Part shown: positions 5,564 through 29,132 of the stretch, one piece after another
How positions within the stretch are numbered: the stretch's first letter is position 1
How the letters are laid out: each line of letters starts with the position of its first letter
Source of the DNA: a virus
Length of the DNA: 36,296 nucleotides
IMG/VR virus record: IMGVR_UViG_3300046482_000026
Coordinates: 1-36,296 of that record
Direction: 5' to 3' (one strand)
Notes under the pieces: model-generated
The model's database searches: none
Told to the model about the DNA's origin: nothing
What the model saw: only the letters and a program-made list of their open reading frames with translations
Translations under genes and position numbers: made by a program

Positions 5564-5754
5564 GCGACGCGCCTGATGGATGCCCGCGCGCCGATCGCCA
5601 CGGGGATATGCAGCTTCTCGTCCTCGACCTGCTGGCGCGCCCACCAGTCACGGTGCTGCGGCTTCGCGCGGTGTGTGGCGACGGCAGCGGCAACCTCGAG
5701 CGGGTCGGCCGGATTGGCCTGGATGAAATCCAGGCACGCGCAGCGGCGCCTCAT
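5560..5754 (-). CDS. Hypothetical 64-aa protein
   Basis: ATG at 5754 overlaps the stop of the Rad52-type gene (ATGA) and its own TGA overlaps the next ATG. The product starts MRRRCACLDFIQANPADPLE and contains an aromatic/basic stretch HRDWWARQQ. No family is recognised. Conserved-looking small proteins with a 'DFI..NP..P' start occur beside phage recombination genes, but that is a loose resemblance. Confidence 0.5.
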   Translation of the reverse strand: MRRRCACLDFIQANPADPLEVAAAVATHRAKPQHRDWWARQQVEDEKLHIPVAIGARASIRRVA

Positions 5755-6335
5755 CCCGCCGGCACCAGCTCTTGCGATGCGATCCATGCCTTCGACGGCT
5801 TGCGCTCGCACCACTTGCCCTGCGTCTTGCCGGAGCAGTAATAGCCCTTGGTGTTCTGGCGCCACTTGTAGCCGTGGTCGGGACAGGCCGATTCGTCGAC
5901 CAGCAGCCCGTCGAATACGGGCATCGGATCGCCGTCGAACGGCGTCTCTTCCTGGGGACGGATCGGCGTCGGCGCGGGACGCACGGCGCGCGGTGCGGGC
6001 TTCTCGCCGTACAGGTCGCGGCCGATGCCCCACTTGACCCCGGCGCGCTTGAAGGCGTCGGAGTGGACGCCCTTGGTGGCCTCGATGTCGGACGGGTCGC
6101 CCGCGTCCCACTTCCAGATCCAGTTCACGTCATCGAAGGTGATGCCGATGCCGCAACGGACGGAACCGTCCGAGCGGTCTTCGTAGCGGTCCTGCCAGCG
6201 GGCAGGCCCCACGGCGGCGTCGAGGCGGTCCATGACGAAGCGGGCGTCGATGTACGACAGCAGCCGCCCGCCCGGGCCCTGCCGTGTCTTTATCTCCGAG
6301 GCGGGAGTCGGGTCGTAGAGGTTGATCTTGGTCAT
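5751..6335 (-). CDS. Rad52/Rad22-type single-strand annealing protein
   Basis: This 194-aa protein carries the Rad52 family signature in its first 115 residues: GGRLLSYIDARFVMDRLDAA, VGPARWQDRY, a central GSVRCGIGITF strand and KGVHSDAFKRAGVKWGIGRD. These proteins form rings that bind and anneal single-stranded DNA. The C-terminus (CPDHGYKWRQ..GYYCSG..GKWCER) is a probable zinc ribbon with three Cys and one His. Start ATG 6335 overlaps the exonuclease stop as ATGA. Together the two form a two-component exonuclease/annealase recombination system, analogous to Red alpha/beta but built from a different annealase family. Confidence 0.85.
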   Translation of the reverse strand: MTKINLYDPTPASEIKTRQGPGGRLLSYIDARFVMDRLDAAVGPARWQDRYEDRSDGSVRCGIGITFDDVNWIWKWDAGDPSDIEATKGVHSDAFKRAGVKWGIGRDLYGEKPAPRAVRPAPTPIRPQEETPFDGDPMPVFDGLLVDESACPDHGYKWRQNTKGYYCSGKTQGKWCERKPSKAWIASQELVPAG

Positions 6336-14943: not shown

Positions 14944-15540
14944 TGCGCGCTCTCGTCATAGCTTGCGCGAAGGCAGCGTCGTCGGACGCCTGCTGATTGC
15001 GCATGTGTTTGCCGATCTCCTCCTCGGCAATGTGTTGAAACCGCCAGCGCAGCTCGGTGAACGTCGCTGGCGGCGTCGAGTAATAGCGGTCGTGGATCGC
15101 CTTCACCGCGCCTTCGCTGTGCGCGAGGCCCTCGACGATCGAGATGTCGACGCGGCGGTGTGACCATTGCGCGAGGACCTCGACGCCTTCACCACTAAAG
15201 GGCGCAGAAGTGACTCCTGATAAACGTCGTCGGCCTTCTCGGCGATCGGGAAGGCGGCGTCCCATGACAGACGGGCAATTGTTTCCGGCGTGCATGGCAC
15301 GGGCTTGCCGTCGTCGTCGAGGAACGTCCAGTCCACGACGCCGTACTGGAGGTATACGCGGCCGATCTTCTCGGACAGGGTATCGGGGTCGCCGCCAATG
15401 AGGCGCAGCGCAGCAAAGCCGCCATCGGGCGGCAGCTCCGAGCGCAACCAGACGGTGTCGCCGTCGGGGTGAGGAGTGCCGGCGCACCGGCACTCCAGAC
15501 CCTCGAGGGGAACCCGTTCGTCAGTAACGAACCAGCCCAT
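14933..15540 (-). CDS. Tail assembly chaperone, -1 frameshift (long) product
   Basis: Ribosomes reading from ATG 15540 reach the heptamer C CCT TTA at 15202-15196 and can slip back one base into the frame that ends at 14933. The long product is about 202 aa: 115 residues in the first frame and 87 after the shift. The second part (EVLAQWSHRRVDISIVEGLA, STPPATFTELRWRFQHIAEE, RNQQASDDAAFAQAMTRARN) is protein-like. The same frame upstream of the site is Arg-rich noise, which supports entry by frameshift. Lambda G/GT-type chaperones work this way and bind the tape measure and tail tube protein. Confidence 0.8.
15103..15540 (-). CDS. Tail assembly chaperone, short product
   Basis: The zero-frame product is 145 aa. 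Residues 1-115 (MGWFVTDERVPLEGLECRCA, LRLIGGDPDTLSEKIGRVYL, KADDVYQESLLRPL) are ordered. The last 30 (SRSSRNGHTAASTSRSSRAS) are low-complexity, as expected for sequence read past a frameshift site. ATG 15540 overlaps the major tail protein stop as TAATG. The position between major tail protein and tape measure is that of the G-type chaperone. Confidence 0.75.
   Translation of the reverse strand: MGWFVTDERVPLEGLECRCAGTPHPDGDTVWLRSELPPDGGFAALRLIGGDPDTLSEKIGRVYLQYGVVDWTFLDDDGKPVPCTPETIARLSWDAAFPIAEKADDVYQESLLRPLVVKASRSSRNGHTAASTSRSSRASRTAKAR
15196..15202 (-). promoter_or_regulatory. Slippery heptamer CCCTTTA for -1 ribosomal frameshifting
   Basis: In the chaperone reading frame the sequence is C CCT TTA, an exact X XXY YYZ heptamer. 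Slippage places CCC and TTT in the decoding sites and leads into the 14933 frame. A possible stimulatory hairpin (GCG-CGAG/CTCG-CGC with one bulge, 15186-15169) begins nine bases downstream. Confidence 0.8.
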
Positions 15541-16568
15541 TACGGAACGTCTGCGCGGGAGTTGATAACGATGGCCCGGATCGGATAGCCGAGGACCGAG
15601 TCATACCGACCCATGCCTTCGAGCGTCACCGTCGTGTTGCCGCCGAGCTCGCCGTCCGATCGCGTCCGCCACGTCAGCGGCAGGTTGAGGGTCAACGAGT
15701 ACGGCGTGGCCGTGCCGGGGATCATCGTCGCGCTTGTGGCCTTCACCTGGACGAAGCGGTTGACCGGGTCGGCGTTGAGCCAGTCGACCGTTTCGCTGTT
15801 CAGGGCGCCAGTGATGGCGTCCACCTTGGCGAAGGTGAACGAGGCGGTGATGGTCCGTCCGCTGATGCCGTAGCCCGCGAGGGCAAAGCGGCTGTTGGAG
15901 CCATTGGCGAACCGCTTGCGGTCAACCTCGTGCTCAACGCGGATGTTCATGGAGTGGAGCGAGTCGCTGATCTGCGTGCCGCCGATCGAGCCCGCCGTGT
16001 CGTCGATGAAGAGCTGCGTGTCGGCACCGAAGATGAGCGGCAGGTTGGAGCCAACCGTCAGGCTGGTGGCGGTCACGTGGGTGTCCACCGTCGAGCCGAC
16101 GCCGCCGCCCGCGAACTGCCACGGGCCGAGGTCATCGGCGAAGGACAGCTCGAAGTTCTCCAGGATGAGATCGCGCACGCGGATGCCGTCCGCCGTCACG
16201 TCGTCGGTGAACTCATCGGTGAAGTAGTCGAACGTCGTGGCCGTCGTTGACAGCCCGGAGAAGGTCCACGTCTTGGCCGTGCCACCCGTGGGCGCCACCC
16301 CGCCGCGTAGCCCTGCCGCGAACACTGTGGCCGCGCTCTCGTAGTCCAGCGCCCCAGTGAAGGGGACGGTCACGTCGAGCGCGGTGCGGTACTTGGTCAG
16401 CATCGGGTCGATTGAGCCCGTGTCTGCCGTATCGTTCATGGTCCAGTTGGGTTCGATCTCGGGCACGCCGCGCCACGGCATCGCCCGAGTCGTCGTCACC
16501 GCCGTGCCAAAGACGCTCTGCTTCCCAAAGCCATGCCGGCGGTGCCTTACAAAGCCTTGTATCGGCAC
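15540..16568 (-). CDS. Major tail tube protein
   Basis: This 342-aa protein, with a GTG start, is beta-rich: GVPEIEPNWTMNDTADTGSI, FELSFADDLGPWQFAGGGVG, NIRVEHEVDRKRFANGSNSR, TASFTFAKVD and NTTVTLEGMGRYDS. Size, composition and position between the tail terminator-type gene and the chaperone fit the tube subunit of siphoviruses. The N-terminus (GFVRHRRHGFGKQSVFGTAV) matches the 'G.g.Et.fGt' start of tube proteins. No Shine-Dalgarno is evident, and a stable hairpin (16584-16599) lies just upstream. Confidence 0.8.
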   Translation of the reverse strand: MPIQGFVRHRRHGFGKQSVFGTAVTTTRAMPWRGVPEIEPNWTMNDTADTGSIDPMLTKYRTALDVTVPFTGALDYESAATVFAAGLRGGVAPTGGTAKTWTFSGLSTTATTFDYFTDEFTDDVTADGIRVRDLILENFELSFADDLGPWQFAGGGVGSTVDTHVTATSLTVGSNLPLIFGADTQLFIDDTAGSIGGTQISDSLHSMNIRVEHEVDRKRFANGSNSRFALAGYGISGRTITASFTFAKVDAITGALNSETVDWLNADPVNRFVQVKATSATMIPGTATPYSLTLNLPLTWRTRSDGELGGNTTVTLEGMGRYDSVLGYPIRAIVINSRADVP

Positions 16569-17483: not shown

Positions 17484-17722
17484 GTGCTGGTGTAGCTCCC
17501 GCACGACTCGCCCCACGGATGGTTGTGGCCACACGAGGCCACGTCCCACGGTGCGTCGGACGCCATCGTGTAGACGGTCTGTAGCCCGGTGGCGATGACC
17601 TTCTGGGCCACGTACTCGGTGAACGACAGGCCGAGCGGGTTGCCGCGCTTCACCTCGCGGCGGTACTCGCGCCAGTAGCGGCGGGCCATCGGGTCGGTGA
17701 TGCAGTCGTGGCGCCGGGCCAT
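17480..17722 (-). CDS. Small head-tail region protein
   Basis: This 80-aa product begins MARRHDCITDPMARRYWREY and contains NPLGLSFTEYVAQKVIATGL. It ends in a Cys/His cluster (SCGHNHPWGESCGSY) that could bind zinc. It starts one base inside the connector stop (TGATG) and is coupled to the gp10-like gene. The slot is that of a head closure or adaptor protein, but it is short for one. No family is recognised. Confidence 0.5.
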   Translation of the reverse strand: MARRHDCITDPMARRYWREYRREVKRGNPLGLSFTEYVAQKVIATGLQTVYTMASDAPWDVASCGHNHPWGESCGSYTST

Positions 17723-18366
17723 CAGACGGCCACCATCTGGTTGCCCGCGTGCGCCCAGTTGGCGATGAACGTCTGGACCTCGACGGGCAGCTGCGAGTAG
17801 TCGATCTGGTTGCCCTCCGGCGTCAGCAGCGTGTTGCCCAGAAGCGACGCCGGCCGGCGCGTGTACCAGCCGGCCAGCGCCTTGACGGCGAGCAGGAAGT
17901 CATGCGGCAGCGGGCTGTACCCGAAGTCGCCCACGATGACGAGGTCATTGGGCAGCGACGTGTACCAGCCGTAGCGGTCGAGGTTGCGATCGTACCAGTC
18001 GGGATTGGCAAGCCAGTGCGGATAACGGCCCGTGCCATAGGGCCGGAGCTGGATGGTCGTGATCGCACCCCGGTCGTCTTCGATCTCCCAGTACGACTCG
18101 TCAAGATCGAGCGCCGCCCCCTGCATCGTGACGCTCGTGATCGTCCGCGCATCGGGTATGGCAACCGCTGCGGCGCCGTTGCTGGTGAACGTCTTGGTCA
18201 CGCCAGTCTGTGCCTCGAACTGACGGCCCGTGGCCTTCTCCAGGAAGGACGCCGCAGCGCGGATGTTCGACGCGATCAGCGCCGTTGAGTAGGTGCCCGT
18301 GGTGCCTGACACATCGAGATAGGCACGCACGTCCGCCTCTGATACCGGCAGTGTCGTCCAGCTCAT
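17722..18366 (-). CDS. Head-tail connector (gp6-like adaptor)
   Basis: This 214-aa protein begins SWTTLPVSEADVRAYLDVSG. The N-terminal helical region includes IRAAASFLEKATGRQFEAQT, the 'a...iE..tgR.f' signature of DNA-packaging adaptor proteins. A beta region (TRTITSVTMQ-type, SYWEIEDDRGAITTIQLRPY) and a helical segment with HDFLLAVKALAGWYTRRPAS follow. ATG 18366 overlaps the stop of the last glycosyltransferase as ATGA. Connector genes usually follow the major capsid gene directly. Here about 7 kb of sugar-modification genes intervene. Confidence 0.75.
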   Translation of the reverse strand: MSWTTLPVSEADVRAYLDVSGTTGTYSTALIASNIRAAASFLEKATGRQFEAQTGVTKTFTSNGAAAVAIPDARTITSVTMQGAALDLDESYWEIEDDRGAITTIQLRPYGTGRYPHWLANPDWYDRNLDRYGWYTSLPNDLVIVGDFGYSPLPHDFLLAVKALAGWYTRRPASLLGNTLLTPEGNQIDYSQLPVEVQTFIANWAHAGNQMVAV

Positions 18367-19622
18367 GCGGCCACCAGCTCGCGCACGGGCACGCCCGGCT
18401 CTTGTAATGCTAACGTTAGGAACTGCTCGGCGGCAACGTCCCAGCGGAAGGATTGGGCGACATGACTGGGGCCATGCCGCCCGAGGTCGATACGCCGATG
18501 GGGATGGTCGAGCAGGTAGGCCACGGCCCTACTGAACGCATCCTCATCGGGAACGGCCCAGTGATGGTCGTACTCGTTGTCGGTGAGGTGCGCGACCGGC
18601 ACGACGCGGCCTGCCGGGCCGATCACCTCGGGGACGGACGAGTAGTCAAGGCCGACGGCGGGTATGCCACAGGCAACCGCCTCGGCGATGGTCAGGCCGA
18701 AGCCCTCCGCGCTCGGTGACACGTACAGGTCGGCCGCGTTGTAGAGGGCCACGAGCGCATCGCGCGGGAACACGCCGCCGCGCTGGGTGAGGATCACCTG
18801 GTCCTGCACCGACTCGGGCATCTTCGAGATCGAGTCGGGCAGAAAGCCGCCCTGGTCGTGCGGCTGGCAATGCAGCACGAGGCGCACGTCGGGACGCTCG
18901 GCCAGAACGGGCGTCATCGAGCGCAGCAGGGCGTTGTACAGCTTGCGCGGCATGTGGCGATCGGTGCGCAGGACCCACGTCTGGCGCGGATCGCCGCCGA
19001 AGAATGCCTTGCACGCCGCCTTGCTGGTCAGCGTGAACGTTCGCTCCGCCGTCTCGATGACGATCGGGGTCGACGGGCTGACCGGGTGGAACGTGTCAGT
19101 GTCAACGCCGTGATACACGAGCGGCGGTGCGTAGCCGACGACCTTGGCGATCTGTTCCCGTCCGAACTCGCTCATCGCGATGGGCTTGATGACGCGCCAC
19201 AGCTCGGCCCAGCGCGGCGGCAACCCGACGCCCTCGATCGGCGCATAGTGGAACGTCGGCACCTGCCGGAAGGCGTCCAGGTATGGCGTAGCAAAGATGC
19301 GCATCCCCGCGAAATCGCCTAGCAGGAACACGGCCTCGGGCTTCCAGTCGCCCCACGGCTCGCCGTTGGTCAGCGACACGGTGGACCGCCCGTGGATAAG
19401 GTCGGGCACGAACGTCGCCACGCCCTCGACGCCGCCCTCGCTGGTGATGAGCGAGGTTGCGTCCACGGTCCTGCTGTGGAACGGCTCGGGCAGGTCGGGC
19501 CCGATCTCGTTCTGCGACACGAAGCGCACGTCGGCGCCGAGCGCCACGAGCGCGCGGCCCACATCCGACGTGACCGTGCCGAAGCCGGTCTGAGCAAGAT
19601 CGCCGAACCACAGGATCCTCAT
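18363..19622 (-). CDS. GT4-type (GT-B fold) glycosyltransferase
   Basis: This 419-aa protein has the GT-B layout. The N-terminal domain begins MRILWFGDLAQTGFG. The interdomain segment is LVYHGVDTDTFHPVSP (169-183), typical of family 4, and the C-terminal nucleotide-sugar domain has AEGFGLTIAEAVACGIPAVG with the EX7E pair Glu306/Glu314. The donor sugar and acceptor are not predictable. It is the last gene of the sugar cassette and is coupled to the head-tail connector. No signal peptide or TM segment is seen, so it acts in the cytoplasm, on virion proteins or on a glycan intermediate. Confidence 0.85.
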   Translation of the reverse strand: MRILWFGDLAQTGFGTVTSDVGRALVALGADVRFVSQNEIGPDLPEPFHSRTVDATSLITSEGGVEGVATFVPDLIHGRSTVSLTNGEPWGDWKPEAVFLLGDFAGMRIFATPYLDAFRQVPTFHYAPIEGVGLPPRWAELWRVIKPIAMSEFGREQIAKVVGYAPPLVYHGVDTDTFHPVSPSTPIVIETAERTFTLTSKAACKAFFGGDPRQTWVLRTDRHMPRKLYNALLRSMTPVLAERPDVRLVLHCQPHDQGGFLPDSISKMPESVQDQVILTQRGGVFPRDALVALYNAADLYVSPSAEGFGLTIAEAVACGIPAVGLDYSSVPEVIGPAGRVVPVAHLTDNEYDHHWAVPDEDAFSRAVAYLLDHPHRRIDLGRHGPSHVAQSFRWDVAAEQFLTLALQEPGVPVRELVAA

Positions 19623-20620
19623 GCGGGCACCAGCAGCCCGAGGGCATCCGCTACGCGCTCGGCATCGGCCGCAAAGTCGATGCGCTCTCGCACGCGCTGC
19701 GCGATGGTGGCGCTCATCTCTGCGTGGCGGTTGGAATCGTCCATGATCTCGTTCATCAGCCGTGCCACCTCTTCGGTGGAGTGGCGATCAAGGTCGATGC
19801 ACGTCACGCCGTCCTCCCACAGGTCGGCGGCAACCTGCCCGGCGTAGTGCGAGGCATGGCCGATGATGGGCCGTCCGACGCTGGCCCAGTAGTGGATGAC
19901 GTAGCCGAAGCCGTCGCCCGTGACCTTGTCGTGCCAGCCGAAGGCCGAGCGGTACATCCACTGCGCGATCTTCGCCGTCGGCTTGACGAAGCCGGACGGC
20001 CCGTTGTGGCCGTAGACGTAGAACATCCACTCGTCCGCGTCGCACGCAGTGAGGGCCTCGTCCACCTGTTCCATGGCCGGGAAGCACGGCAGGGCCGGGA
20101 AGAGGTTGACGAATGACGACGCCGTGCGCGTGCGCAGGAACGGCGGTATGTGGGCGAACGTGCCGCTGATGTCGAACTCGGGCGTGAACGCGACACCGCC
20201 CGGATATTGCCCCGTGGCATCGAGGATGAACGGGTCGAGCGAGCGGTTCACCGGCTGGTTGGCATTGCCGACCTGGACGGCGTAGCGCGCGCCCTTCTCG
20301 CTGGCGAAGCGAGAGTAGCCGAACTCGTTGTCAGGCACCGAGCAGATGACCAGCGCCCAGTCGTCCATCTCGCGCGCCTCCGCGAGCGTGGTAAGCCGTC
20401 GCCGGCGGAGCGGCTGCAGCTCGTCAATCTCGGGCATGAGCAGGAACTGGCGGGCCACGCCCTCGCCGCCGTCGGTGTACTGCCAGCCGAAGTTCCAGTA
20501 GCCCTCGGCCTTCCAGTCGAGGCCGTAGGGAACGTGGACCTCCAGGCCGAGGCGGTCCCCGAACAGGCGGTGCAGCGACTCCATGAGGTCAGAGTGGTGA
20601 ACGTCGATCAGGACTCTCAC
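19619..20620 (-). CDS. Glycosyltransferase-like protein (GT-B type, 333 aa)
   Basis: GTG 20620 overlaps the previous stop as GTGA. The longer frame to 21199 is antisense-like filler. The product begins RVLIDVHHSDLMESLHRLFG. A C-terminal half with HYWASVGRPIIGHASHYAGQ, DGVTCIDLDRHSTEEVARLM and a helical tail resembles the donor-binding domain of GT-B enzymes ('G.P.I......DG.t...D..s.eei'). The classical EX7E motif is absent. Context between two glycosyltransferases supports a sugar-transfer role. It could be a related sugar-nucleotide or capsule-type enzyme. Confidence 0.6.
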   Translation of the reverse strand: MRVLIDVHHSDLMESLHRLFGDRLGLEVHVPYGLDWKAEGYWNFGWQYTDGGEGVARQFLLMPEIDELQPLRRRRLTTLAEAREMDDWALVICSVPDNEFGYSRFASEKGARYAVQVGNANQPVNRSLDPFILDATGQYPGGVAFTPEFDISGTFAHIPPFLRTRTASSFVNLFPALPCFPAMEQVDEALTACDADEWMFYVYGHNGPSGFVKPTAKIAQWMYRSAFGWHDKVTGDGFGYVIHYWASVGRPIIGHASHYAGQVAADLWEDGVTCIDLDRHSTEEVARLMNEIMDDSNRHAEMSATIAQRVRERIDFAADAERVADALGLLVPA

Positions 20621-21708
20621 GCGGCCACCGCCTCGAGCTTTGGCGCGACGGTGCGCCCGGCGAGGAAGTCGTCCCACTGCTCCGCGACCTTGTCCATGGC
20701 GAAGTGCTCCAACGCGAGGAACCGGCTGGCCTCGCTGACACGCTGCGCGTAGGCATCGTCGTGCAGGATGCGCTTTAGGTAGTCGTATGCCACCTCCGCG
20801 TCCTCGGTGGCGATCGGCGCGAGCTCGTGCATCTCCAGCAGCTCGGAGCCGTAGGGCAGAATGCGGTACCACGACGGGCCGATGCTCACCGTGGGCATGC
20901 CCGACATCATGGCCTCGACGAAGTTCAGGACGTAGCTCGCCGGCTGGGTGCCGGTCGCAAGATAGGCGCGGGCGTTTGTCAGCCAGAGGCGCATCTTGTC
21001 GTAGGGCAGCGCCCCGAGGCCGCCATGAGCCTCTGAGCCCGGTCCTGCGGGGACACGTCGCAGGCCGGTCGTGGCTGCATCCCAGAAGCCGAACGAGGTC
21101 CACTGCCAGCCCGGAGGCTGGAGCTTGCCATCGTCGGCCAGGCTGCGCCGATAAAGATTTTGACTGATGTTGGTGACGACCTTCTGGTCGCCGACCCACG
21201 GGCCGTACTCGTCGGGATCCTTGTAGAAGCGGATCAATGCATCCGCTCCTGCATAGCCCGGAATGTTCCGTTCCTTCGGTGAATAGCGGACGATCTGCAG
21301 GCCGTCACGCCGGAGCGGCGCCATCATCGCCTCGTTGCGGTCGCCCGACTGGCCGATGGTCCGCCACACGACGCGCTTATGTCGGAGGCGGTCCCAGTTC
21401 GGGACGACCCAGCGGTGCTCGAGCGCGGAGCAGATGATGACCTCCGCCCAGTCCAGGATGACATCGGGCAGGCCCATGTCCTTGGTCGCCATCAACGTGT
21501 CGGCGTGGCCTTGCTGGCCAAGAGCGTCCACGGCGGCGATACACTCCGGCACCTCGGGCACCTGCGGCAGCGGCGGGCGATGGTCGTCGAGCGGGCGTGA
21601 CGGATGGATGTACGCGCCGATGCTGAACACCTCGTGGCCGAGCTCGTGGAAGAGGCGCACCTCGTCGTATTCGAGGATGGAGTGAGCGCCCATGTAGACG
21701 ATCTTCAC
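20617..21708 (-). CDS. Glycosyltransferase (GT-B like, 363 aa)
   Basis: GTG 21708 overlaps the stop of the small upstream gene as GTGA. The longer frame to 21861 is rejected. It begins VKIVYMGAHSILEYDEVRLF and has HELGHEVFSIGAYI. The C-terminal half includes ASYVLNFVEAMMSGMPTVSI, PYGSELLEMHELAPIATEDA and DAYAQRVSEASRFLALEHF, matching the donor-site region of GT-B enzymes, with Glu in the 'F.EAm..G.P' position. Its ligands are unknown. It is part of the coupled sugar cassette. Confidence 0.65.
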   Translation of the reverse strand: MKIVYMGAHSILEYDEVRLFHELGHEVFSIGAYIHPSRPLDDHRPPLPQVPEVPECIAAVDALGQQGHADTLMATKDMGLPDVILDWAEVIICSALEHRWVVPNWDRLRHKRVVWRTIGQSGDRNEAMMAPLRRDGLQIVRYSPKERNIPGYAGADALIRFYKDPDEYGPWVGDQKVVTNISQNLYRRSLADDGKLQPPGWQWTSFGFWDAATTGLRRVPAGPGSEAHGGLGALPYDKMRLWLTNARAYLATGTQPASYVLNFVEAMMSGMPTVSIGPSWYRILPYGSELLEMHELAPIATEDAEVAYDYLKRILHDDAYAQRVSEASRFLALEHFAMDKVAEQWDDFLAGRTVAPKLEAVAA

Positions 21709-21854
21709 TTCTTCACCAGCCAGCCCCTGCGCCGTGCACGGCCGTAGTGGTAGTAGCAGGCGGTCGACCAGACGCTGCCGGGCGATACCTCTCCGTATGA
21801 ACGCTGCCCGCACAGGCGCAGCGGGTCGCGGAAGGACGGCTGCTGACAGGTCAT
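21705..21854 (-). CDS. Hypothetical 49-aa protein inside the sugar cassette
   Basis: ATG 21854 overlaps the preceding glycosyltransferase stop (ATGA) and TGA 21707-21705 overlaps the next GTG (GTGA). The peptide starts MTCQQPSFRDPLRLCGQRSY, contains VWSTACYYHYGRARRRG and ends LVKK. It has three Cys, a Tyr/His cluster and a basic tail. There is no recognised family and no TM segment. Without it there would be a 150-base gap in a chain of overlapping genes, which supports it as real. Confidence 0.5.
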   Translation of the reverse strand: MTCQQPSFRDPLRLCGQRSYGEVSPGSVWSTACYYHYGRARRRGWLVKK

Positions 21855-22510
21855 GCCGCAATCTCCCGCCGGGCGGTGTCAGCCCAGTTGGGGTGCAGGA
21901 CCACGCCCGCGGCGAGGCAGTCGCGCAGGTAATCGCGGAAGCGGTCGCGCCGGAACACGCCGTCGTTGCGATGCTGGTCGATCAGGTAGTGGTTCTGCGT
22001 CGTGCCGCGCAGATGCTCGTATGAGCCGTGGGGCAGCTCGCGGACGGTGGCGATCGCCTCCAGCTCGCGGCCGAACGTCCAGAAGTGGTCGACCGGATCA
22101 GGGCCGAAGTAGCGCGAGGTGGCATCGATCGACTCGCGCCGCACCAGCAGCGAGGCCGGGTGCCACCGATCGCCTTCTAGGAAGCCCAGCACCACCCGAT
22201 CGGCCATCGCGTCGTTCATGGCGTCCCAGAAGCCGTCGCGGACGAGGAAGTCCTGCTCGGTGAACCAGACCCATTCGGCGTCGGAGTGGGTGAGGGCGTG
22301 GCGCACGGCGGCATCGCGCCAGTCGGGGCCGTCTGGCGAGTCGAGGACGTGGACGCCCATCTCGTGCAGCGTCTGGCGGAGCCACGTCCCGTAATCGGTC
22401 CCGTCGTGCGCCGTGAGCACCACGATCACGCGCTCGAAGCGGTCCATCTCCGCCGCCAGGAAGGCGCGGAACAACGGGTAGTCGCAGGTGCGCGGCCAGG
22501 CCACGATCAC
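21851..22510 (-). CDS. GT-A type glycosyltransferase (219 aa)
   Basis: GTG 22510 overlaps the previous stop as GTGA. The much longer frame to 23389 reads antisense noise upstream. The product begins MIVAWPRTCDYPLFRAFLAA and has VIVVLTAHDG. The metal-site position EWVWFTEQDFLVRDGFW (Glu85-Gln-Asp87) resembles a DxD variant of family-2-like enzymes. The catalytic half (FLEGDRWHPASLLVRRESID) follows. It is shorter than, and divergently related to, the two preceding GT-A genes. Confidence 0.65.
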   Translation of the reverse strand: MIVAWPRTCDYPLFRAFLAAEMDRFERVIVVLTAHDGTDYGTWLRQTLHEMGVHVLDSPDGPDWRDAAVRHALTHSDAEWVWFTEQDFLVRDGFWDAMNDAMADRVVLGFLEGDRWHPASLLVRRESIDATSRYFGPDPVDHFWTFGRELEAIATVRELPHGSYEHLRGTTQNHYLIDQHRNDGVFRRDRFRDYLRDCLAAGVVLHPNWADTARREIAA

Positions 22511-23460
22511 GTCCACGAGATCAGCCCGTCGAAGCTGCGCCGCCAGGTGTCCACATTCGCCTGGCTTTGCCCTGTGCCGGCCATGAAGGCGGCGATGGCG
22601 GCTCGATATTCCTCGCGCTTGTGCGGCAGGCCATCGCCCTCGTCGGTCACGCGCTGCCACCACGCCATGCGCTTGTCCCAGTCGAAGAGGTCGTCGCGAA
22701 TGGAGGCGTACATGGAATCGAGTGACTCCTGGTCGCCCACGAGATACATGCCGTAGCCCGCCGAGAGCGAGCCGACGTGGAACCACGGCGCGTTCTGCCA
22801 GTTCGCCATGTCCGGGCGGGCGCGGTACTGGGGCATGATCCGGACGCGCAGGCCCAGCTCGCGCAGCTCCAGCGAGGCGAGGCCGAAAGTGTCGGCGGCT
22901 TGGACCTCGGACGCGAGCCGTGCCGTGCCTGTGATGCGCTCGTTCACGTCCCACGCATGGGCACCGAAGCGCATCGAGGTCCGTAGCAGGTCGGAGCGCC
23001 ACGCGAAGAGGAAGCACGGCCAGAAGAGCGGCCCTTCCTCGCCGTTGTCGGCACGCTGCTCGCCGAGCGCGGAGTTGGCATACAGGATCAGCTCGGGCGA
23101 GGCCGAGCCGCGCGGGCAGCCCACGAGGTCCACGCTGCGGTCCTCGATCAGCCGGAACATCTCGTCGATGATGGCGGGCCGGCGCACGAAGGCGTCGTCC
23201 TCGCACAGCATCACCGTGTCGGCGCCTGTCTCGCGCACCAGCCGCTCGATGGCACGGCCATGATCCACGCGATCGGAGAAGATGCGCATGACGACGTTGC
23301 CACGCACGAGCGAGCGCAGGTACTTCCTGACGGCGCGATCGCGCACGCCGTAGACGTGGACGCGCAACTCGTCGACCTGGTCCTGCCACGTCGCCGCATG
23401 GCGCAGCCAGTACTCGACGAGGAACGGGTCGGCCCCGGCCGGCAGCAGCGCGGCCCTCAT
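22507..23460 (-). CDS. GT-A type glycosyltransferase (317 aa)
   Basis: ATG 23460 overlaps the preceding stop as ATGA. It begins MRAALLPAGADPFLVEYWLR. The acidic metal motif is TVMLCEDDAFV (Glu87-Asp-Asp89), followed by VGCPRGSASPE (114 on) and LFWPCFLFAWRSDLLR. These features, and ELRELGLRVRI with WFHVGSLS, are shared in order with the neighbouring 290-aa enzyme. The two are clearly paralogues from a tandem duplication. A GT-A fold acting on a nucleotide-sugar donor is inferred. No membrane segment is seen. Confidence 0.7.
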   Translation of the reverse strand: MRAALLPAGADPFLVEYWLRHAATWQDQVDELRVHVYGVRDRAVRKYLRSLVRGNVVMRIFSDRVDHGRAIERLVRETGADTVMLCEDDAFVRRPAIIDEMFRLIEDRSVDLVGCPRGSASPELILYANSALGEQRADNGEEGPLFWPCFLFAWRSDLLRTSMRFGAHAWDVNERITGTARLASEVQAADTFGLASLELRELGLRVRIMPQYRARPDMANWQNAPWFHVGSLSAGYGMYLVGDQESLDSMYASIRDDLFDWDKRMAWWQRVTDEGDGLPHKREEYRAAIAAFMAGTGQSQANVDTWRRSFDGLISWT

Positions 23461-24329
23461 TCCCACGTCACCCACGGCTCGAGCCGGCCGTCCCACCAGC
23501 GATCGTCGATCGCGGCGTGCTCGCAGAAGGCATCCAGGCGTGCGGCATCCACGCCCATGCGGCGCAGCCACCAGATGCGGTGCGCCCAGTCTTGCCCTTC
23601 GAGGTTGTCCATGCCGATGTCGGACCTGCTCACGAGCTCGTTCGACAGGCCGCCCGCGTGCAACCACGGCTCATCGCCGGTGCACTCCTTCTGCCACATC
23701 TCCTTGTAGTTGGCGCACTCGTCAACGCGGATCAGGTCGCGCTCGCGCAGCTCGAACGCGGCGGCGGTCATGGTGTCGGTCATCATGTCGGCGGGTACCG
23801 TCCATCCCAGCCCCGGCACGGTGTCGCCTGCGTACCACGTCGTCGAGGCGAAGGTCTGGCAGCGGCGCAGGTCATCGCTGCGGGCGAACAAGAAGCATGG
23901 CCACAAGCCATGCCCGTCCGAGCCGCGATCACCCTTGACCTCGCCCCACTTGGCGGTCGCCGCCTCGGCGATGGCCGGGTCCATGCCGCCACGCGGGCAA
24001 CCGATGACCGCGCCCGTGGCCGCCACGTCGTCGAGGCGTGCCGTGATGGCCTCGCCGTCGCGCACCCAGGCGTCCTCCTCGACGAGCATCACCACGTCGG
24101 CCTCGCAGGCGTCCACGAGCACGCGCAGCGCCTCGCCGTGGCCCATGCGCCCGTGCATCACGGCGACCTTCGCACCGACCGCCTCGAACGTCGGAGCGGC
24201 CGATCCGTCGCCGTTGACGAGCACGAGCAGGTCGTCCACGCGGCCCTGCCACACGTTGCGGTAGGCGTTGGTCCAGTAGGCCGCGACGTGCGGGTTGCCC
24301 ACGGTCGGCAGGAGTGCGGCGGTCCTCAC
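23457..24329 (-). CDS. GT-A type glycosyltransferase (290 aa), paralogue of its neighbour
   Basis: GTG 24329 overlaps the FkbM stop as GTGA. It begins VRTAALLPTVGNPHVAAYWT. The motif DVVMLVEEDAWVRDG holds acidic Glu84-Glu-Asp86, followed by VIGCPRGGMDPAI and LWPCFLFARSDDLRR, then ELRERDLIRV and WLHAGGLS. The order and spacing match the 317-aa enzyme downstream. It may transfer a different sugar in a multi-step glycan. Acceptor unknown. Confidence 0.7.
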   Translation of the reverse strand: MRTAALLPTVGNPHVAAYWTNAYRNVWQGRVDDLLVLVNGDGSAAPTFEAVGAKVAVMHGRMGHGEALRVLVDACEADVVMLVEEDAWVRDGEAITARLDDVAATGAVIGCPRGGMDPAIAEAATAKWGEVKGDRGSDGHGLWPCFLFARSDDLRRCQTFASTTWYAGDTVPGLGWTVPADMMTDTMTAAAFELRERDLIRVDECANYKEMWQKECTGDEPWLHAGGLSNELVSRSDIGMDNLEGQDWAHRIWWLRRMGVDAARLDAFCEHAAIDDRWWDGRLEPWVTWE

Positions 24330-25102
24330 CGGAGCAGCGCCTCGAAGTGGCCGATGGTCGGGTGCTCGGCCACGGTCAGGTGGTGCGTATCGCCGAGCAG
24401 GGCGAAGAGCTCCTCCTGCGCGAACTCCTGCCGCTCGTGCGCCTGTGCACCGGCAACGTGCCGCGCGGCGTCGCCCTGGCCGCGATAGTCCCAGTGGTAC
24501 TCGCCAATGATGTACTTCACACGGGCGACGGCATGATCGAGCAGGAACGCCCACTCCGCGCCCTCGGCGTCGATCTTGAGGAACTCGACCTCGTCAATGC
24601 CGTAGCGCTCCATGATGCCCGACAGGCTGATCGTCGGGATGTCCACCGCCTCGGAGTCGAACGCGCCACCGACGGCCGTGTCCCAGAACGAGTTGCCGAT
24701 GAAGCGGTGCTTGTTGACATAGGCGGTCGATGCTTTCGGGTGCGAGCGATGGCGCATGAAGCACGTCCGGCTGATCTCATCCGGGCCGCCCGCCGCCTCG
24801 GTGAGAATGTGCACGCGGTCGGCAAAGCCGTTGCGCTCCAGGTTGTCCTTCATCATCTGGACGTTCTCGGGCACGATCTCCACGGCGACGATGCGCAGGT
24901 CGGGGTTCTGGTACGCGAGGGCGCATGTGACTGCTCCGACGTGGGCGCCGATGTCAATCGCCCAGCCGCCGAACGGGTCCCACTGGCGCACGTGGTACTC
25001 GTCCTCGACGATCGACGAGTAGCACACGTCGTGGTCCACCGTCGAGGGACGAGTACCCATCGTGACCATGCCGAACTGGCGCCATATTGGCTCCTCGATC
25101 AA
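24326..25102 (-). CDS. FkbM-family SAM-dependent methyltransferase
   Basis: This 258-aa protein has the class I methyltransferase motif WAIDIGAHVGAVT (47-59), the acidic end of strand 2 in IVAVEIVPEN (71-80) and the FkbM signature VEFLKIDAEGAEWAFL (172-187). FkbM enzymes usually O-methylate sugars or natural products. In the cassette it probably caps or decorates the glycan. The start is TTG 25102, overlapping the TGA of the 50-aa gene (TTGA). This rare start codon may keep expression low relative to the capsid gene upstream. Confidence 0.85.
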   Translation of the reverse strand: MIEEPIWRQFGMVTMGTRPSTVDHDVCYSSIVEDEYHVRQWDPFGGWAIDIGAHVGAVTCALAYQNPDLRIVAVEIVPENVQMMKDNLERNGFADRVHILTEAAGGPDEISRTCFMRHRSHPKASTAYVNKHRFIGNSFWDTAVGGAFDSEAVDIPTISLSGIMERYGIDEVEFLKIDAEGAEWAFLLDHAVARVKYIIGEYHWDYRGQGDAARHVAGAQAHERQEFAQEELFALLGDTHHLTVAEHPTIGHFEALLR

Positions 25103-25251
25103 CGGGCGCCCATCTTCTTGTGGTCCTTGAGCAGCGCCGCCATGCGATCGTCGATCGACTGGCCGACCAGCTCTTCGAGGCCGGAGTTGTCGATCTTCTG
25201 CTCCTTGGGCTCCTCCTTGGGAGCCTCTGCCTTGGCCTTCTTCTCTGCCAT
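25099..25251 (-). CDS. 50-aa Lys/Glu-rich protein after the capsid gene
   Basis: ATG 25251 has a good Shine-Dalgarno (GGAGGA, four bases upstream) and follows two hairpins after the capsid stop. The product starts MAEKKAKAEAPKEEPKEQKI, a charged disordered segment, and ends in a short helix SIDDRMAALLKDHKKMGAR. Its stop overlaps the TTG of the methyltransferase. Having its own ribosome site just after the capsid gene suggests substantial expression. A small head-associated protein is possible, but no family is recognised. Confidence 0.55.
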   Translation of the reverse strand: MAEKKAKAEAPKEEPKEQKIDNSGLEELVGQSIDDRMAALLKDHKKMGAR

Positions 25252-25276
25252 TCCGTCCTCCAGCTAGGGGATCGTC

Positions 25277-25316
25277 GGCCGCTTACGGCGGCCAGTCGTT
25301 CACTCAACCCGAGTGA
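25277..25316. other. Tandem hairpins after the major capsid gene
   Basis: TCACTC/GAGTGA (25300-25305 with 25311-25316) and GGCCGC/GCGGCC (25277-25282 with 25288-25293) form two perfect 6-bp stems with 5-nt loops, directly after the capsid stop codon. There is no T tract. They could act as a partial terminator, or as a 3' stabiliser that raises capsid mRNA relative to the sugar genes. Confidence 0.5.
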
Positions 25317-26681
25317 CTAGGGCATCACATTGACGATGCGTTGGAAAAAGCCGGCCGACACATACGGATCGGCGTTGAAGGCGATGTCCTCCTCGAAACG
25401 GAAGCCGGTGAGGTTCTTATCCCACCGATCTCCAGCCTCGGTCGAGGTATCGACTCGCAAGTCCTCGCCGATGTACAGGTCTGCCGACCGGAAGTCACCC
25501 ACCACGAGCGAATCGGTCGGCATCTGGTTGCTGACCACGACGGGCAGGCCCCAGATGCGCATTGCGAAGGTGCCGTCACTGAACGCGCCAGTGGCGTCAA
25601 CCGTGTTCGCACCACCGGGTGCGAGGTAGAAGCCAGCCGCGTCGGCGCCAGCCGCGAGCGACTGCCAGAAGTCCGAGCTGTTCATCACGACGCCCGTGGC
25701 CGTGCGGTTGCGTCCGGCGATGGCAGCCGACGCATTGGCGATTGCCGTGGCGAAGTTGCCCGCGATCGTCGACATGCTCGGCGATGAGTGCGTGGTCACG
25801 AACGTGCCCGAGCCGCCGATCGAGGTCAGCAGACCCTTCGGCTCGCTCGTGCCCGAACCCTGCAGGATGTAGTACGCCTCGCCGCTTGCGATGGCCTGTG
25901 CGCCACGCTCGCGGATCAGACGCTCACCCGTGCCGCCAGTCTGGCGAAGCCACTGGTTGGCCGCATCGTGGATGACCGCCAGCGTGTAGAACGTCGCTGA
26001 GTAGTTACTGAAAGCGATGTTCGCGTTGGTCTTGGTCTCACCACGGGCGATGACCACCGCACGGGTCGGCGCGAGACCGACGTGCGGCACCTCGACCGTC
26101 GGGCCGGGGATGCCGGTCACGACGTTCAGGAGACGACGGAATGGGTTGTTTGCTGACTGGACAGTGGTCATCTCGGCGACGACGGCGCGCGGGGCGACGT
26201 AGCCGCCCGTTGCGTCGGTCGAGCCGAGCGTGGCCTTGCTCTCCGAGGGGACACCCTTCCACGTCGAGCCCATGTCGAGCAGGGCCTTCTCGGCGGCCAT
26301 GCGCTCCTGGGTCGGCGCCTTGGGGTTCTGGGCGATGGCGAGGTTCAGGAAGAAGCGGTCGGTGTTCGACCCCGACTCCGCGATCTCGCCGAGGATGGCC
26401 GCCGCCTTGGACGGCGTGCGCACGTCCTTGGCGATCTCCGTCATGCGCTGCTCGATCGCAGCGATGCGCTCTTCGGCCTTCTTCTGGGCCTCCATCTCGG
26501 CCTGCTGCGCCTTCTGTGCAGCAACCTCGTTGGCGACCTCGTCGATCTTGTCGGCCAGGGCGTTGATCCGATCAGCGCCGTCGCCGTTCTCCTTGGCCTC
26601 CTTGAGCTCGGAGGTCAGCTGCTCGAGGTTGGCAAAGGCTGCGTCGGCCTTCTGCTTGACCTCTTCGAGTGTGTCAGTCAC
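25317..26681 (-). CDS. Major capsid protein (HK97 fold)
   Basis: GTG 26681 overlaps the protease stop as GTGA, giving 454 aa. The longer frame to 26789 adds noise. Residues 1-90 (TLEEVKQKADAAFANLEQLT, ADKIDEVANEVAAQKAQQAE) are a long coiled coil, the delta or scaffolding domain removed by the protease in HK97-type heads. The mature part begins around 140-160 and shows GGYVAPRAVVAEMTTVQ, GTGERLIRERGAQAIASGEA, GSGTSEPKGLLTSIGG and IWGLPVVVSNQMP, the classic 'G.g...p.Gil' and 'G.Pv' signatures. There is no strong Shine-Dalgarno, so high expression would rely on coupling. Confidence 0.93.
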   Translation of the reverse strand: MTDTLEEVKQKADAAFANLEQLTSELKEAKENGDGADRINALADKIDEVANEVAAQKAQQAEMEAQKKAEERIAAIEQRMTEIAKDVRTPSKAAAILGEIAESGSNTDRFFLNLAIAQNPKAPTQERMAAEKALLDMGSTWKGVPSESKATLGSTDATGGYVAPRAVVAEMTTVQSANNPFRRLLNVVTGIPGPTVEVPHVGLAPTRAVVIARGETKTNANIAFSNYSATFYTLAVIHDAANQWLRQTGGTGERLIRERGAQAIASGEAYYILQGSGTSEPKGLLTSIGGSGTFVTTHSSPSMSTIAGNFATAIANASAAIAGRNRTATGVVMNSSDFWQSLAAGADAAGFYLAPGGANTVDATGAFSDGTFAMRIWGLPVVVSNQMPTDSLVVGDFRSADLYIGEDLRVDTSTEAGDRWDKNLTGFRFEEDIAFNADPYVSAGFFQRIVNVMP

Positions 26682-27703
26682 TCGGGTTTCTTGTTGGAGG
26701 GCACGCCCTCCTTCGGTTCGTACTTGGTGCGGACCCGCTTGCGGAACGTGTCGATGCGCTTGGTGAGTTCGTCGACGAACTCCTGCCACGCATCCAGTTC
26801 CCGCAGGTTCGCGCCCGACAGCTCACGCCCCGCCTTCGCCGCCGCCTCGCCCGTGAGGTTGGCGTCCAGGTCGCGCAGGGTCTCGAGCTCGGTCAGGATG
26901 TCCGCGAGGCGGGCATCAACCGCAATGTCGGCTTGGTTGAAGGCATCCAGCACGGCCTTCGCCGGGCGGATGGTGCTGTGGATGTTCTGTGGAGAGGTCG
27001 AGAGCGTCTGCATCATGTACGGCCAGACCTCGATGTGCCCGGCCTTGCCACGCTTCACGAGGTTGGGATAGGCGTAGGACGAGCCGAACAGCTCGGCACC
27101 CTTCTCGGCGAGGCTCTTGACCAGCGCCAGGCGCTTCTCGCCCGCGTTGAGCCAGAGATCGACCCACCAGCCGTCGTCGTCCATGCGCAGGTTCTTGGCC
27201 TTGCCGATGAGCACGCCGTTCATGCGCCCTGACGGGTCCTGCGAGTGATGCCAGTCCACCGGCCGCTCATCGAACCAGTCCGGCTTTATGTCCGTGCTGG
27301 CATCGAAGTACTCGCCGTCGAGATCAAGGCTCTTGCCAGCCGGCCCCGGAATGGGCCCGGAGAACGGGATGGCGAGCAGGCGCCTCGGCACCTTGCCCGC
27401 GAACCACGCCTCGGTCGCGTCGGCGTCGAGCGGCTCGGCCTTTGATACGCCCACCTTTGCCTCCTGCGCGTGTGCTTTCAGATGGTCCTCTCCGCATGAA
27501 GTGGTGTCGTCCTGGGCCACGCGTGCCAGCGCGTTGCGCAGGTGCGGCAGGTCGAGCGAGCCGTCGGCCCGGTGATGCGGGTAGTGGCGCTTGGAGCGTG
27601 GCACCGTCTTGCCCTGTTCGTCCTTCTCACCGCCCGGGTCGATGCAGGCGAAGGCGGAATCTGGCAGGGCGTTGATCTCTGCCGCTGTCAGCTCGGCCTT
27701 CAT
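26678..27703 (-). CDS. Prohead maturation protease (HK97/S78-like)
   Basis: This 341-aa protein precedes the capsid gene. An N-terminal domain (SAFACIDPGG, SKRHYPHH, LPHLRNALARVAQ) of the kind fused to many phage proteases is followed by the protease. The protease has PVDWHHSQDPSG with catalytic His152/153, GKAKNLRMDDDGWWVDLWL, and GAELFGSSYAYP with Ser208/209. A helical C-terminal tail (ILTELETLRDLDANLTGEAA) may tether it to the scaffold. It cleaves the capsid delta domain during maturation. The start is GTGATG (27706/27703), overlapping the preceding stop. Confidence 0.85.
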   Translation of the reverse strand: MKAELTAAEINALPDSAFACIDPGGEKDEQGKTVPRSKRHYPHHRADGSLDLPHLRNALARVAQDDTTSCGEDHLKAHAQEAKVGVSKAEPLDADATEAWFAGKVPRRLLAIPFSGPIPGPAGKSLDLDGEYFDASTDIKPDWFDERPVDWHHSQDPSGRMNGVLIGKAKNLRMDDDGWWVDLWLNAGEKRLALVKSLAEKGAELFGSSYAYPNLVKRGKAGHIEVWPYMMQTLSTSPQNIHSTIRPAKAVLDAFNQADIAVDARLADILTELETLRDLDANLTGEAAAKAGRELSGANLRELDAWQEFVDELTKRIDTFRKRVRTKYEPKEGVPSNKKPE

Positions 27704-28359
27704 CACGAGAGCACCACCAATATCTCCTCGTCCTCACGGCGAAGCTGGACCAGTCGACGGTCGGCGTACACGGCCCGGCGGATCAGCCGGCCGCCGCCTT
27801 CACCCGCGCCGAGGACGGTCGCGTCGTATGCCTGGCCGGTGCCTGTTGCGACCCCGGCGTTGGCTGTCACCGTGCCGCCGCTGACGGTGACCGTGGCGTC
27901 GTAGGCGACACCCGTGCCCGTCGCTGCGCTGGTGCTGACCGTGACCGATGCTGCCGGCCCGCCTGCGGCACCACTGCCACTGCCAACGCCTGCGCCAGGA
28001 GCGAGCGACACCGAGGCACCGACCGCCTCGCCGGTGCCGGTGGCAGCGCCCGCGCTCGCGGTCGTCTGCGTGCTGGTGTCGACCGTGGCGTCATACGCGG
28101 CGCCGGTGCCCGATGCCAGCTCGGCGTTGGGCTGGACCATCGACGACGGGCCACCTGCGGCACCTGATCCGGTGGCAACACCAGATGAGGGCTGGAGCAG
28201 CGCCGACGCGTTCTGGGCTGCACCTGTGCCGGTGCCGACCTCGGCGTTGGGGACGATGATGATCGAGGCATCGGCGCCCGCGCCCGCGCCGGTTGCCGCA
28301 CCGGCATCGGCGACGGTGAACACGCCGGCATCGGAGTTGAAGAGGAGCAGTAGGCTCAT
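27703..28359 (-). CDS. Gly/Ala/Thr repeat protein (218 aa)
   Basis: After MSLLLLFNSDA the protein contains eight imperfect repeats of about 20-24 residues (19-182) with consensus A-x-x-A-T-G-T-G-x-A-x-D-A-T-V (for example GVATGTGQAYDATV, ELASGTGAAYDATV). A basic end follows: RLIRRAVYADRRLVQLRRED. The repeats suggest a fibrous or beta-solenoid virion-surface element. They are rich in Thr and Ser, making them possible O-glycosylation acceptors for the cassette downstream (inference). ATG 28359 overlaps the preceding stop as ATGA. A related motif (EGTGAANDATV) occurs in the 68-aa protein at 31391-31597. Confidence 0.6.
   Translation of the reverse strand: MSLLLLFNSDAGVFTVADAGAATGAGAGADASIIIVPNAEVGTGTGAAQNASALLQPSSGVATGSGAAGGPSSMVQPNAELASGTGAAYDATVDTSTQTTASAGAATGTGEAVGASVSLAPGAGVGSGSGAAGGPAASVTVSTSAATGTGVAYDATVTVSGGTVTANAGVATGTGQAYDATVLGAGEGGGRLIRRAVYADRRLVQLRREDEEILVVLS
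27814..28305 (-). repeat. Eight in-frame repeats encoding ATGTGxAxDATV units
   Basis: The repeat units begin near protein residues 19, 39, 59, 79, 104, 124, 144 and 168. They are conserved more at protein than DNA level, so this is an old internal duplication rather than a recent tandem expansion. Confidence 0.65.
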
Positions 28360-29132
28360 AGTCCGAAGAACCCGCTCTGACCCATCGGATCGACGGGCGT
28401 GAAGCTCGTATTGGTGTCGTTGAGGACGACCCAGAGCAGGTTGCCGGTCTCACTCGCCGACAGGGCCTCGATCTCCAGCTGCAGCGTGACGCCCGCTGCG
28501 CCGGTCGTAACGAGTCGGTAGCCCGCATCGCAGCTCATGTCGTCGCCGGTCGTGCACGATGCGTGAGTGGCCGGCGACTCGACGTAGTTGCCGTTCCAGG
28601 TGACGAGGGAGCCTGAGTCGCGGATGTTGTCAGAAGCGCGCGTGAAGGTGCCCGAGTCGTCGCGGATAGCGGCGATGCCGATCACCGCGCTGCCCGTCGG
28701 CACGTCGATGGTCGTGCCCGCCGAGATGGTCTGCGGCCCCGCTGAGGCGGTCCACGCGGCCTGCCGGTATTCGGGCGTCGACCAGAACGAGAGCGACTTG
28801 GAGAACACGGTGATGACGCCCTCGCCGACGAGGCCGGTCGTGGTCGAGAAGTCGAGCGTCGGGTCAGACTCGGTGTCGGTGGTCGCTTCCTTGTACCAGA
28901 CGCCGATCTTCATCGAGCCGGTGCCGTTGCCGGTGCCGGTCGTGCCGTCGGCGATCTCGATCAGCTCGGTCCAGCCGCTGATCTGAGCGGTGATGGCAAA
29001 GTCCTTCCAGCAACCGATGGCGAGCATCATGTCGCCGGTTACTTGGGCGGCGGGGACCGCCAGCACCTCGTCGGCCGTCAGGCCGGTCGAGCCGTTCTCC
29101 CAGGTGCCGACGGCGCGGAATGAGACTGTCAC
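28356..29132 (-). CDS. Beta-rich virion surface/appendage protein (258 aa)
   Basis: GTG 29132 overlaps the previous stop as GTGA. The longer frame to 29237 is noise. The product begins VSFRAVGTWENGSTGLTADE. It is strand-rich (TGDMMLAIGCWKDFAITAQI, SMKIGVWYKEATTDTESDP, SGSAV-type IGIAAIRDDSG, VTLQLEIEALSASETGNLLW). The pattern 'P..v..GD.mla...wk' is common in phage jelly-roll-like decoration or tail-associated proteins. Two Cys (SCTTGDDMSC) may pair. Its exact role is unknown. Confidence 0.55.
   Translation of the reverse strand: MTVSFRAVGTWENGSTGLTADEVLAVPAAQVTGDMMLAIGCWKDFAITAQISGWTELIEIADGTTGTGNGTGSMKIGVWYKEATTDTESDPTLDFSTTTGLVGEGVITVFSKSLSFWSTPEYRQAAWTASAGPQTISAGTTIDVPTGSAVIGIAAIRDDSGTFTRASDNIRDSGSLVTWNGNYVESPATHASCTTGDDMSCDAGYRLVTTGAAGVTLQLEIEALSASETGNLLWVVLNDTNTSFTPVDPMGQSGFFGL

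What the first reader, a model, noticed from the sequence alone, without database searches (positions are those of the whole stretch)
18363..25102. Seven-protein glycan-modification cassette embedded in the head operon
An FkbM methyltransferase, three GT-A type enzymes, three GT-B type enzymes and a 49-aa unknown lie between the major capsid gene and the head-tail connector, all coupled by 4-nt overlaps. In most siphoviruses the connector follows the capsid gene directly. Established knowledge: some mycobacteriophages (Che8, Corndog, Myrna) glycosylate capsid or tail proteins with phage enzymes. Inference: this phage builds a multi-sugar, methylated glycan on its virion, made in step with the capsid. 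The alternative is modification of host surface glycans, but late co-expression with structural genes favours virion proteins.
Basis: partly seen in the sequence, partly recalled or inferred. Interest (0 to 1): 0.88.

Follow-up and report, generated by a model that had tools for sequence, protein, structure and literature searches.

The report
Sugar-enzyme locus inside phage head operon
In a whole lineage of environmental tailed phages, the gap between the capsid gene and the head-tail connector gene always holds sugar-transferring enzymes, most likely to coat the virus head with a glycan that differs from phage to phage.

Summary
Between the major capsid gene (25317-26681, minus strand) and the HK97-gp6-like connector (17722-18366) lie an FkbM methyltransferase and six glycosyltransferases (three GT-A, three GT-B). 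All nine junctions from the 50-aa gene at 25099 to the connector are 4-nt overlaps. The folds are supported by structure prediction, profile or homology, weakly for A3. The 49-aa ORF is not conserved.

Searching IMG/VR by capsid and connector, without using the enzymes, all 40 contigs spanning both genes carry glycan genes between them. In 53 spans the enzyme families occur 194 times inside the interval and never outside it. A GT4 enzyme beside the connector (B3) is in every one, and its divergence tracks the head genes (rho about 0.8). FkbM, B1 and B2 are shuffled between genomes (rho 0.03-0.18 with capsid). Other genomes fill the slot with GT2s, FdtA, acetyltransferases or FabH.

Best explanation: a cytosolic virion-glycosylation locus, with B3 probably priming a head protein and an exchangeable module building a variable, methylated glycan. 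The virion target is inferred, not shown. DNA glycosylation and lipid-linked host-surface modification find little support. New variant of a known kind.

The parts
25317..26681 (-). HK97-fold major capsid protein, upstream border of the locus and most likely acceptor
   Evidence: PF05065 E 1.4e-30, phrog_10 E 4.5e-47, TIGR01554 over cut-off; acceptor role inferred
25276..25316 (-). two hairpins after the capsid stop codon, possible attenuator
   Evidence: sequence; similar hairpins after the capsid stop in most of 79 loci
25099..25251 (-). 50-aa charged protein (kek), function unknown
   Evidence: relatives in 17 loci, seen at the same position in those mapped; no family hit except Pfam LMWPc below cut-off
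24326..25102 (-). FkbM-family methyltransferase
   Evidence: PF05050 and TIGR01444 over cut-off
23457..24329 (-). A1, GT-A type glycosyltransferase
   Evidence: AlphaFold2 pLDDT 86.7, Foldseek E 1.4e-7 to GpgS; conserved E-x-D
22507..23460 (-). A2, GT-A type glycosyltransferase, paralogue of A1
   Evidence: 31% identity to A1 in alignment
21851..22510 (-). A3, probable GT-A type glycosyltransferase
   Evidence: weak SunS profile match E 0.003; conserved E-x-D
21705..21854 (-). 49-aa ORF, not conserved, possible coupling filler
   Evidence: no relative among 26,775 ORFs; composition
20617..21708 (-). B1, GT-B type glycosyltransferase of a mainly viral family
   Evidence: TarM profile match E 5e-5; 192 viral against 17 cellular-genome relatives
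19619..20620 (-). B2, GT-B type glycosyltransferase
   Evidence: AlphaFold2 pLDDT 88.4, Foldseek E 3e-9
18363..19622 (-). B3, GT4 glycosyltransferase, universal in the lineage, probable first enzyme
   Evidence: PF13692 over cut-off; in 53 of 53 spans; tracks head genes
17722..18366 (-). head-tail connector (HK97 gp6-like), downstream border
   Evidence: phrog_442 head-tail adaptor E 5.4e-13

Best explanation
A virion-glycosylation locus built into the head operon. The late operon makes the capsid protein and, with coupled translation, a set of soluble glycosyltransferases and an FkbM methyltransferase. Using host nucleotide sugars in the cytosol, these build a short glycan on a head protein, most likely the major capsid protein. 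B3 (GT4), fixed next to the connector and inherited with the head genes, most likely attaches the first sugar; A1, A2, A3, B1 and B2 extend it and FkbM methylates it. The extension module is exchanged between phages, so related heads carry different glycans. Shown: gene identity, conserved position, universal B3, shuffling of the rest. Inferred: acceptor, order of action, B3 as first enzyme, and the benefit (changed surface recognition, stability or adsorption).
For: Enzyme identities. Unbiased scans with capsid and connector profiles: 40 of 40 spanning contigs hold glycan genes between them. In 53 spans, 194 family hits inside the interval (270 kb) and 0 in the other 668 kb fetched. Pairwise divergence: MCP-B3 rho 0.82, B3-gp6 0.84, MCP-gp6 0.78, against MCP-FkbM 0.03, MCP-B1 0.12, MCP-B2 0.18 (n=38); B3 groups with portal, MCP and gp6, not with tail genes. 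Alternative slot contents are largely sugar-pathway genes. Soluble enzymes; no lipid-carrier priming transferase and no GtrA flippase in 38 records. Two phages with named hosts, phiPsal1 and Mae-JY09, have glycan genes in the same interval. Precedent: capsid and tail-tube glycans in mycobacteriophages as cited in PMC11256854 and PMC12619734.
Against: No virion mass data. Capsid and putative tail-tube proteins show no C-terminal extension, while the mycobacteriophage glycans are reported at C-termini (PMC12619734). In trees B3 agrees best with its neighbour gp6 (2 of 16 supported splits contradicted) and less with MCP (12 of 20), so B3 may hitch-hike with the connector. Larger phages carry the same GT families in islands with no capsid gene detected nearby.
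Confidence: 0.7

Rival explanations
1. Host-surface modification: the enzymes alter host cell-wall or capsule glycans late in infection or in lysogens, blocking superinfection or re-adsorption of progeny.
For: B1 resembles TarM, a teichoic-acid glycosyltransferase, over its C-terminal part; window phage has an integrase; others propose superinfection exclusion for freshwater actinophage GTs (PMC10202952) and for late-expressed GTs of gut phages (PMC8008677).
Against: No GtrA flippase or lipid-carrier priming transferase in 38 records, enzymes soluble; TarM itself is soluble, so this is not excluded. Integrase in only 2 of 38 records. Does not explain the strict capsid-connector position or B3 following head genes.
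Confidence: 0.17
2. DNA glycosylation: the enzymes decorate modified bases of phage DNA as protection against nucleases.
For: Proposed for freshwater actinophage GTs (PMC10202952); one relative has a C5-methyltransferase-like ORF between B3 and the connector (L008:14281-14958).
Against: No TET/JBP hits in 38 records (but its control was silent) and thymidylate synthase in 1 of 38; records are partly fragments. Slots with FdtA, FabH, acetyl- and methyltransferases fit protein or surface glycans better.
Confidence: 0.05
3. Structural hot spot for morons: the interval is merely a permissive insertion site inside the head operon and the glycan genes have assorted functions unrelated to the virion.
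For: Contents vary strongly and are exchanged.
Against: Only glycan-type genes among identified contents, never empty in 40 spans, B3 always present and inherited with the head block.
Confidence: 0.08

Closest known systems
Mycobacteriophage virion glycosylation (Che8 and others; Freeman et al. 2023, not held, known here through PMC11256854 and PMC12619734)
   Same: Tailed phages whose capsid and tail-tube proteins carry glycans, with phage-encoded glycosyltransferases.
   Different: In the Che8 relative Maravista the GT genes lie near the 3' end of the genome; here a coupled multi-enzyme set always lies between capsid and connector. Homology of the enzymes was not tested.
Pontimonas phage phiPsal1 (MG835450)
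   Same: Capsid, GT4, SAM methyltransferase, GT2, gp6-family neck protein in the same interval; distantly related connector gene.
   Different: Only two GTs; the methyltransferase is on the other strand and is not FkbM; the phage was not studied and is reported lost (PMC6106888).
Microcystis phage Mae-JY09 (PP395641)
   Same: A GT4 and an epimerase between capsid and head-tail adaptor.
   Different: Cyanophage; its GT is 36% identical to that of phiPsal1, not a direct match of the window; no FkbM annotated.
Bacterial O-antigen and capsule loci (general knowledge)
   Same: Conserved flanks around exchangeable GT, methyl-, acetyl- and nucleotide-sugar genes.
   Different: No lipid-carrier priming transferase or GtrA flippase found; coupled to virion genes.

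Membership tests
FkbM methyltransferase family | match over curated cut-off | tested here: met
   PF05050 55.5 (22.7), TIGR01444 66.7 (37.7) bits
GT4 (B3) | Glycosyl transferases group 1 domain over cut-off, with E-x7-E | tested here: met
   PF13692 55.5 bits against 27; EGFGLTIAE in the sequence
GT-A fold (A1, A2) | GT-A fold with acidic DxD-like motif | tested here: met
   A1: Foldseek E 1.4e-7, prob 1.00, TM-score only about 0.44; E-x-D conserved. A2 by homology to A1
GT-A fold (A3) | GT-A fold | tested here: inconclusive
   SunS profile match E 0.003 only; not folded
GT-B fold (B1, B2) | GT-B fold or homology to GT-B enzymes | tested here: met
   B2 Foldseek E 3e-9; B1 profile to TarM E 5e-5. 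A full E-x7-E is not conserved, so catalysis is not assured
Virion glycosylation system (mycobacteriophage type) | phage-encoded glycosyltransferases | tested here: met
Virion glycosylation system (mycobacteriophage type) | glycan on capsid or tail-tube protein | not testable with these tools
   needs mass spectrometry
Virion glycosylation system (mycobacteriophage type) | glycan at the C-terminus of capsid or tail-tube protein | tested here: inconclusive
   no C-terminal extension in capsid or putative tail-tube proteins; sites themselves cannot be seen
DNA hypermodification system | modified-base synthesis genes (TET/JBP, thymidylate-synthase-like) | tested here: not met
   0 of 38 TET (control silent, so weak) and 1 of 38 thymidylate synthase
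Gtr serotype-conversion operon | GtrA flippase | tested here: not met
   0 of 38 records; control rang in 7 genomes

The most novel reading that the evidence does not exclude
The capsid-connector interval is a virion glycotype locus: a head-matched priming glycosyltransferase (B3) plus an exchangeable module that gives each phage head its own glycan, a phage counterpart of bacterial O-antigen loci, used to vary the head surface.
Probability: 0.45. Interest if true: 0.85.

Novelty: new variant of a known kind. Interest (0 to 1): 0.72.

Why it matters
Phage virion glycosylation is known from a few mycobacteriophages. Here, if the inference is right, it is an obligatory and hypervariable part of the head operon of a whole environmental lineage, with one enzyme inherited with the head and the rest swapped. 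Heads of related phages would then be chemically distinct. The idea makes testable predictions (which protein carries the glycan, which enzyme starts it) and points to glycosyltransferase groups with no current family model (A1/A2, B1, B2).

Tried and rejected
DNA similarity to INPHARED phages: none. tblastn of MCP, B2, B1, FkbM and gp6 against phages: none, nor of a relative's MCP; only B3 gave distant hits. A viral scan with B2 alone found nothing, because its patterns were too narrow; B1 alignment scans worked.

Considered and set aside: C-terminal glycan sites as in mycobacteriophages (no extensions); the 49-aa ORF as an acceptor peptide (not conserved); the repeat proteins 27703-28359 and 29129-30925 as the general acceptor (relatives in only 12 and 5 loci). 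A first divergence analysis used untrimmed ORFs and was repeated with trimmed domains and 90% de-duplication. Tree comparison weakens the claim that B3 follows MCP specifically rather than the head block or its neighbour gp6. Freeman et al. 2023 is not held.

Full report
WHAT IS THERE. The window is one IMG/VR record. Head and tail genes run on the minus strand: terminase, portal, capsid 25317-26681, cassette, connector 17722-18366, neck, putative tail tube, tape measure ('tail tube' for 15540-16568 is by position only).

ENZYMES. FkbM and B3 pass curated cut-offs. For the other five no family model passes. Alignments of relatives gave profile matches to TarM and HepE for B1, to HepE for B2 and weakly to SunS for A3. 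AlphaFold2 models of A1 and B2 are confident, and Foldseek places them among GT-A (GpgS) and GT-B (PimB', HepE, TarM, MshA) enzymes. The A1 TM-scores are modest (about 0.44), so the fold class is better supported than any detailed relationship. A1 and A2 are paralogues. None has a strong membrane segment.

RELATIVES. Scanning IMG/VR with B1 gave 192 relatives, against 17 in one genome each of 84,980 bacterial and archaeal species, so B1 is mainly a viral family. About 45 loci have capsid, some or all of FkbM-B1-B2-B3, and connector in that order. To remove the bias of searching with an enzyme I scanned with profiles of the capsid and of the connector. Of 72 distinct capsid loci, 40 reach the connector, and all 40 hold glycan genes in between. 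The capsid profile was itself built from cassette-bearing loci, so a more distant cassette-free relative could be missed. Over 53 non-redundant spans from all scans, the enzyme families occur 194 times in the interval (270 kb) and never in the other 668 kb fetched. B3 is in all 53; FkbM+B1+B2+B3 together in 40; B3 alone of these families in 10; A1/A2-type genes in 7 and A3 in 2. The B3 profile is a broad GT4 profile, but the B3 copies counted next to the connector average 45% pairwise identity. The interval measures 2.2-9.6 kb.

SLOT VARIATION. Where FkbM, B1 and B2 are missing, other glycan genes fill the slot: GT2 enzymes (L135, L114, L174), an NTP transferase (L135:14489-15190) and, in two related contigs, genes including FdtA (seen in L172), GNAT acetyltransferase, FabG and FabH (L172, L147), which suggest an acylated sugar. 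GDP-mannose 4,6-dehydratase (L131; TIGR01472 428 bits against 415), an epimerase (L018) and hexapeptide acetyltransferases (L003, L040) occur beside B1-B2-B3. Several slot ORFs remain unidentified.

TWO TIERS. Pairwise divergence of B3 follows capsid (rho 0.82) and connector (0.84), as well as capsid follows connector (0.78). FkbM, B1 and B2, which lie physically between capsid and B3, do not follow the capsid (0.03, 0.12, 0.18) although their mean identities are similar (n=38). Portal, pre-capsid gene, capsid, B3 and connector form one block; neck and tail genes are only loosely tied to it. The partial correlation of capsid and B3 given connector is 0.48. Trees are more cautious: B3 and connector are nearly congruent (2 of 16 supported splits contradicted), while capsid and B3 conflict at 12 of 20, against 15-17 of 20 for FkbM, B1 and B2. 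So B3 is inherited with the head block, most tightly with the connector, and the rest is exchanged in place. I read this as a fixed first enzyme plus a swappable extension module; hitch-hiking of B3 with the connector is the main alternative.

TARGET. The enzymes are soluble; no initiating sugar-phosphate transferase (0 of 38 records) and no GtrA flippase (0 of 38) was found, so the acceptor is likely cytosolic. TET/JBP and thymidylate-synthase families are absent or nearly so (the TET control was silent, so that answer is weak). Position, operon and B3 inheritance point to a head protein. Precedent: capsid and tail-tube glycans in mycobacteriophages (PMC12619734, PMC11256854). Those are reported at C-termini; here the capsid protein ends without an extension, so sites would lie elsewhere. 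Freshwater actinophage GTs have been assigned by their authors to DNA protection or superinfection exclusion (PMC10202952); those genomes were not compared here.

HOST. Unknown. TerL matches are many actinobacteriophages at low identity, but the two best are Synechococcus phages. A Nanopelagicales MAG contig carries A12-B1-B2-B3 (L094), and phiPsal1 was found in a Microbacteriaceae culture (PMC6106888). An actinobacterial host is likely but not shown. The window phage has an integrase; only 2 of 38 records do, though many are fragments.

VERDICT. Observation confirmed; interpretation plausible and strengthened by position and inheritance, but the target is unproven. Within the held literature I found no description of this capsid-connector glycan locus, which is not proof of absence. 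New variant of a known kind.

Noticed in passing
window 25276-25316 (-): Two hairpins between capsid stop and kek. Most relatives have a strong G+C-rich hairpin just after the capsid stop (79 loci, median z -2.2 against mononucleotide shuffles); in about 15 it has a recurring covarying form ACTG[AG]CC..C[CG]T[ATC]A..GG[CT]CA. Possibly an attenuator or RNA-processing element lowering enzyme relative to capsid expression.
   Followed up: partly
window 27703-28359 (-): 218-aa Ala/Gly/Thr/Ser repeat protein (repeats like ATGTGxAYDATV) between portal and capsid; relatives in 12 loci.
   Followed up: no
window 29129-30925 (-): 598-aa protein with repeated segments (HDSPDAGNPVKIGGKA-like) and no family match; possible head fibre or decoration protein.
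   Followed up: no
L172:12155-16496 and L147:12417-16033: Slots hold GNAT, an ACP-like 90-aa ORF, FabG-like and FabH genes (plus FdtA in L172): looks like a pathway for an acylated amino sugar inside a phage head operon.
   Followed up: partly
L008:14281-14958: C5-DNA-methyltransferase-like ORF (LDLFCGAGG) between B3 and the connector.
   Followed up: no
L097:8569-20340 (Bacillus methanolicus): Chromosomal B1 relative in a cluster that looks like GDP-mannose and dehydratase genes, read by eye.
   Followed up: no
L006:5997-9906: Large-phage island of the same GT families adjoins a virion structural protein (phrog_1623) and a nucleotide-sugar epimerase.
   Followed up: partly
L002:9916-11206: Near-identical second contig of the same phage; its capsid reading frame is interrupted, perhaps a sequencing or assembly error.
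   Followed up: no
window 2036-3034 and 5751-6335 (-): Tyrosine integrase and Rad52-family protein: the window phage may be temperate.
   Followed up: partly
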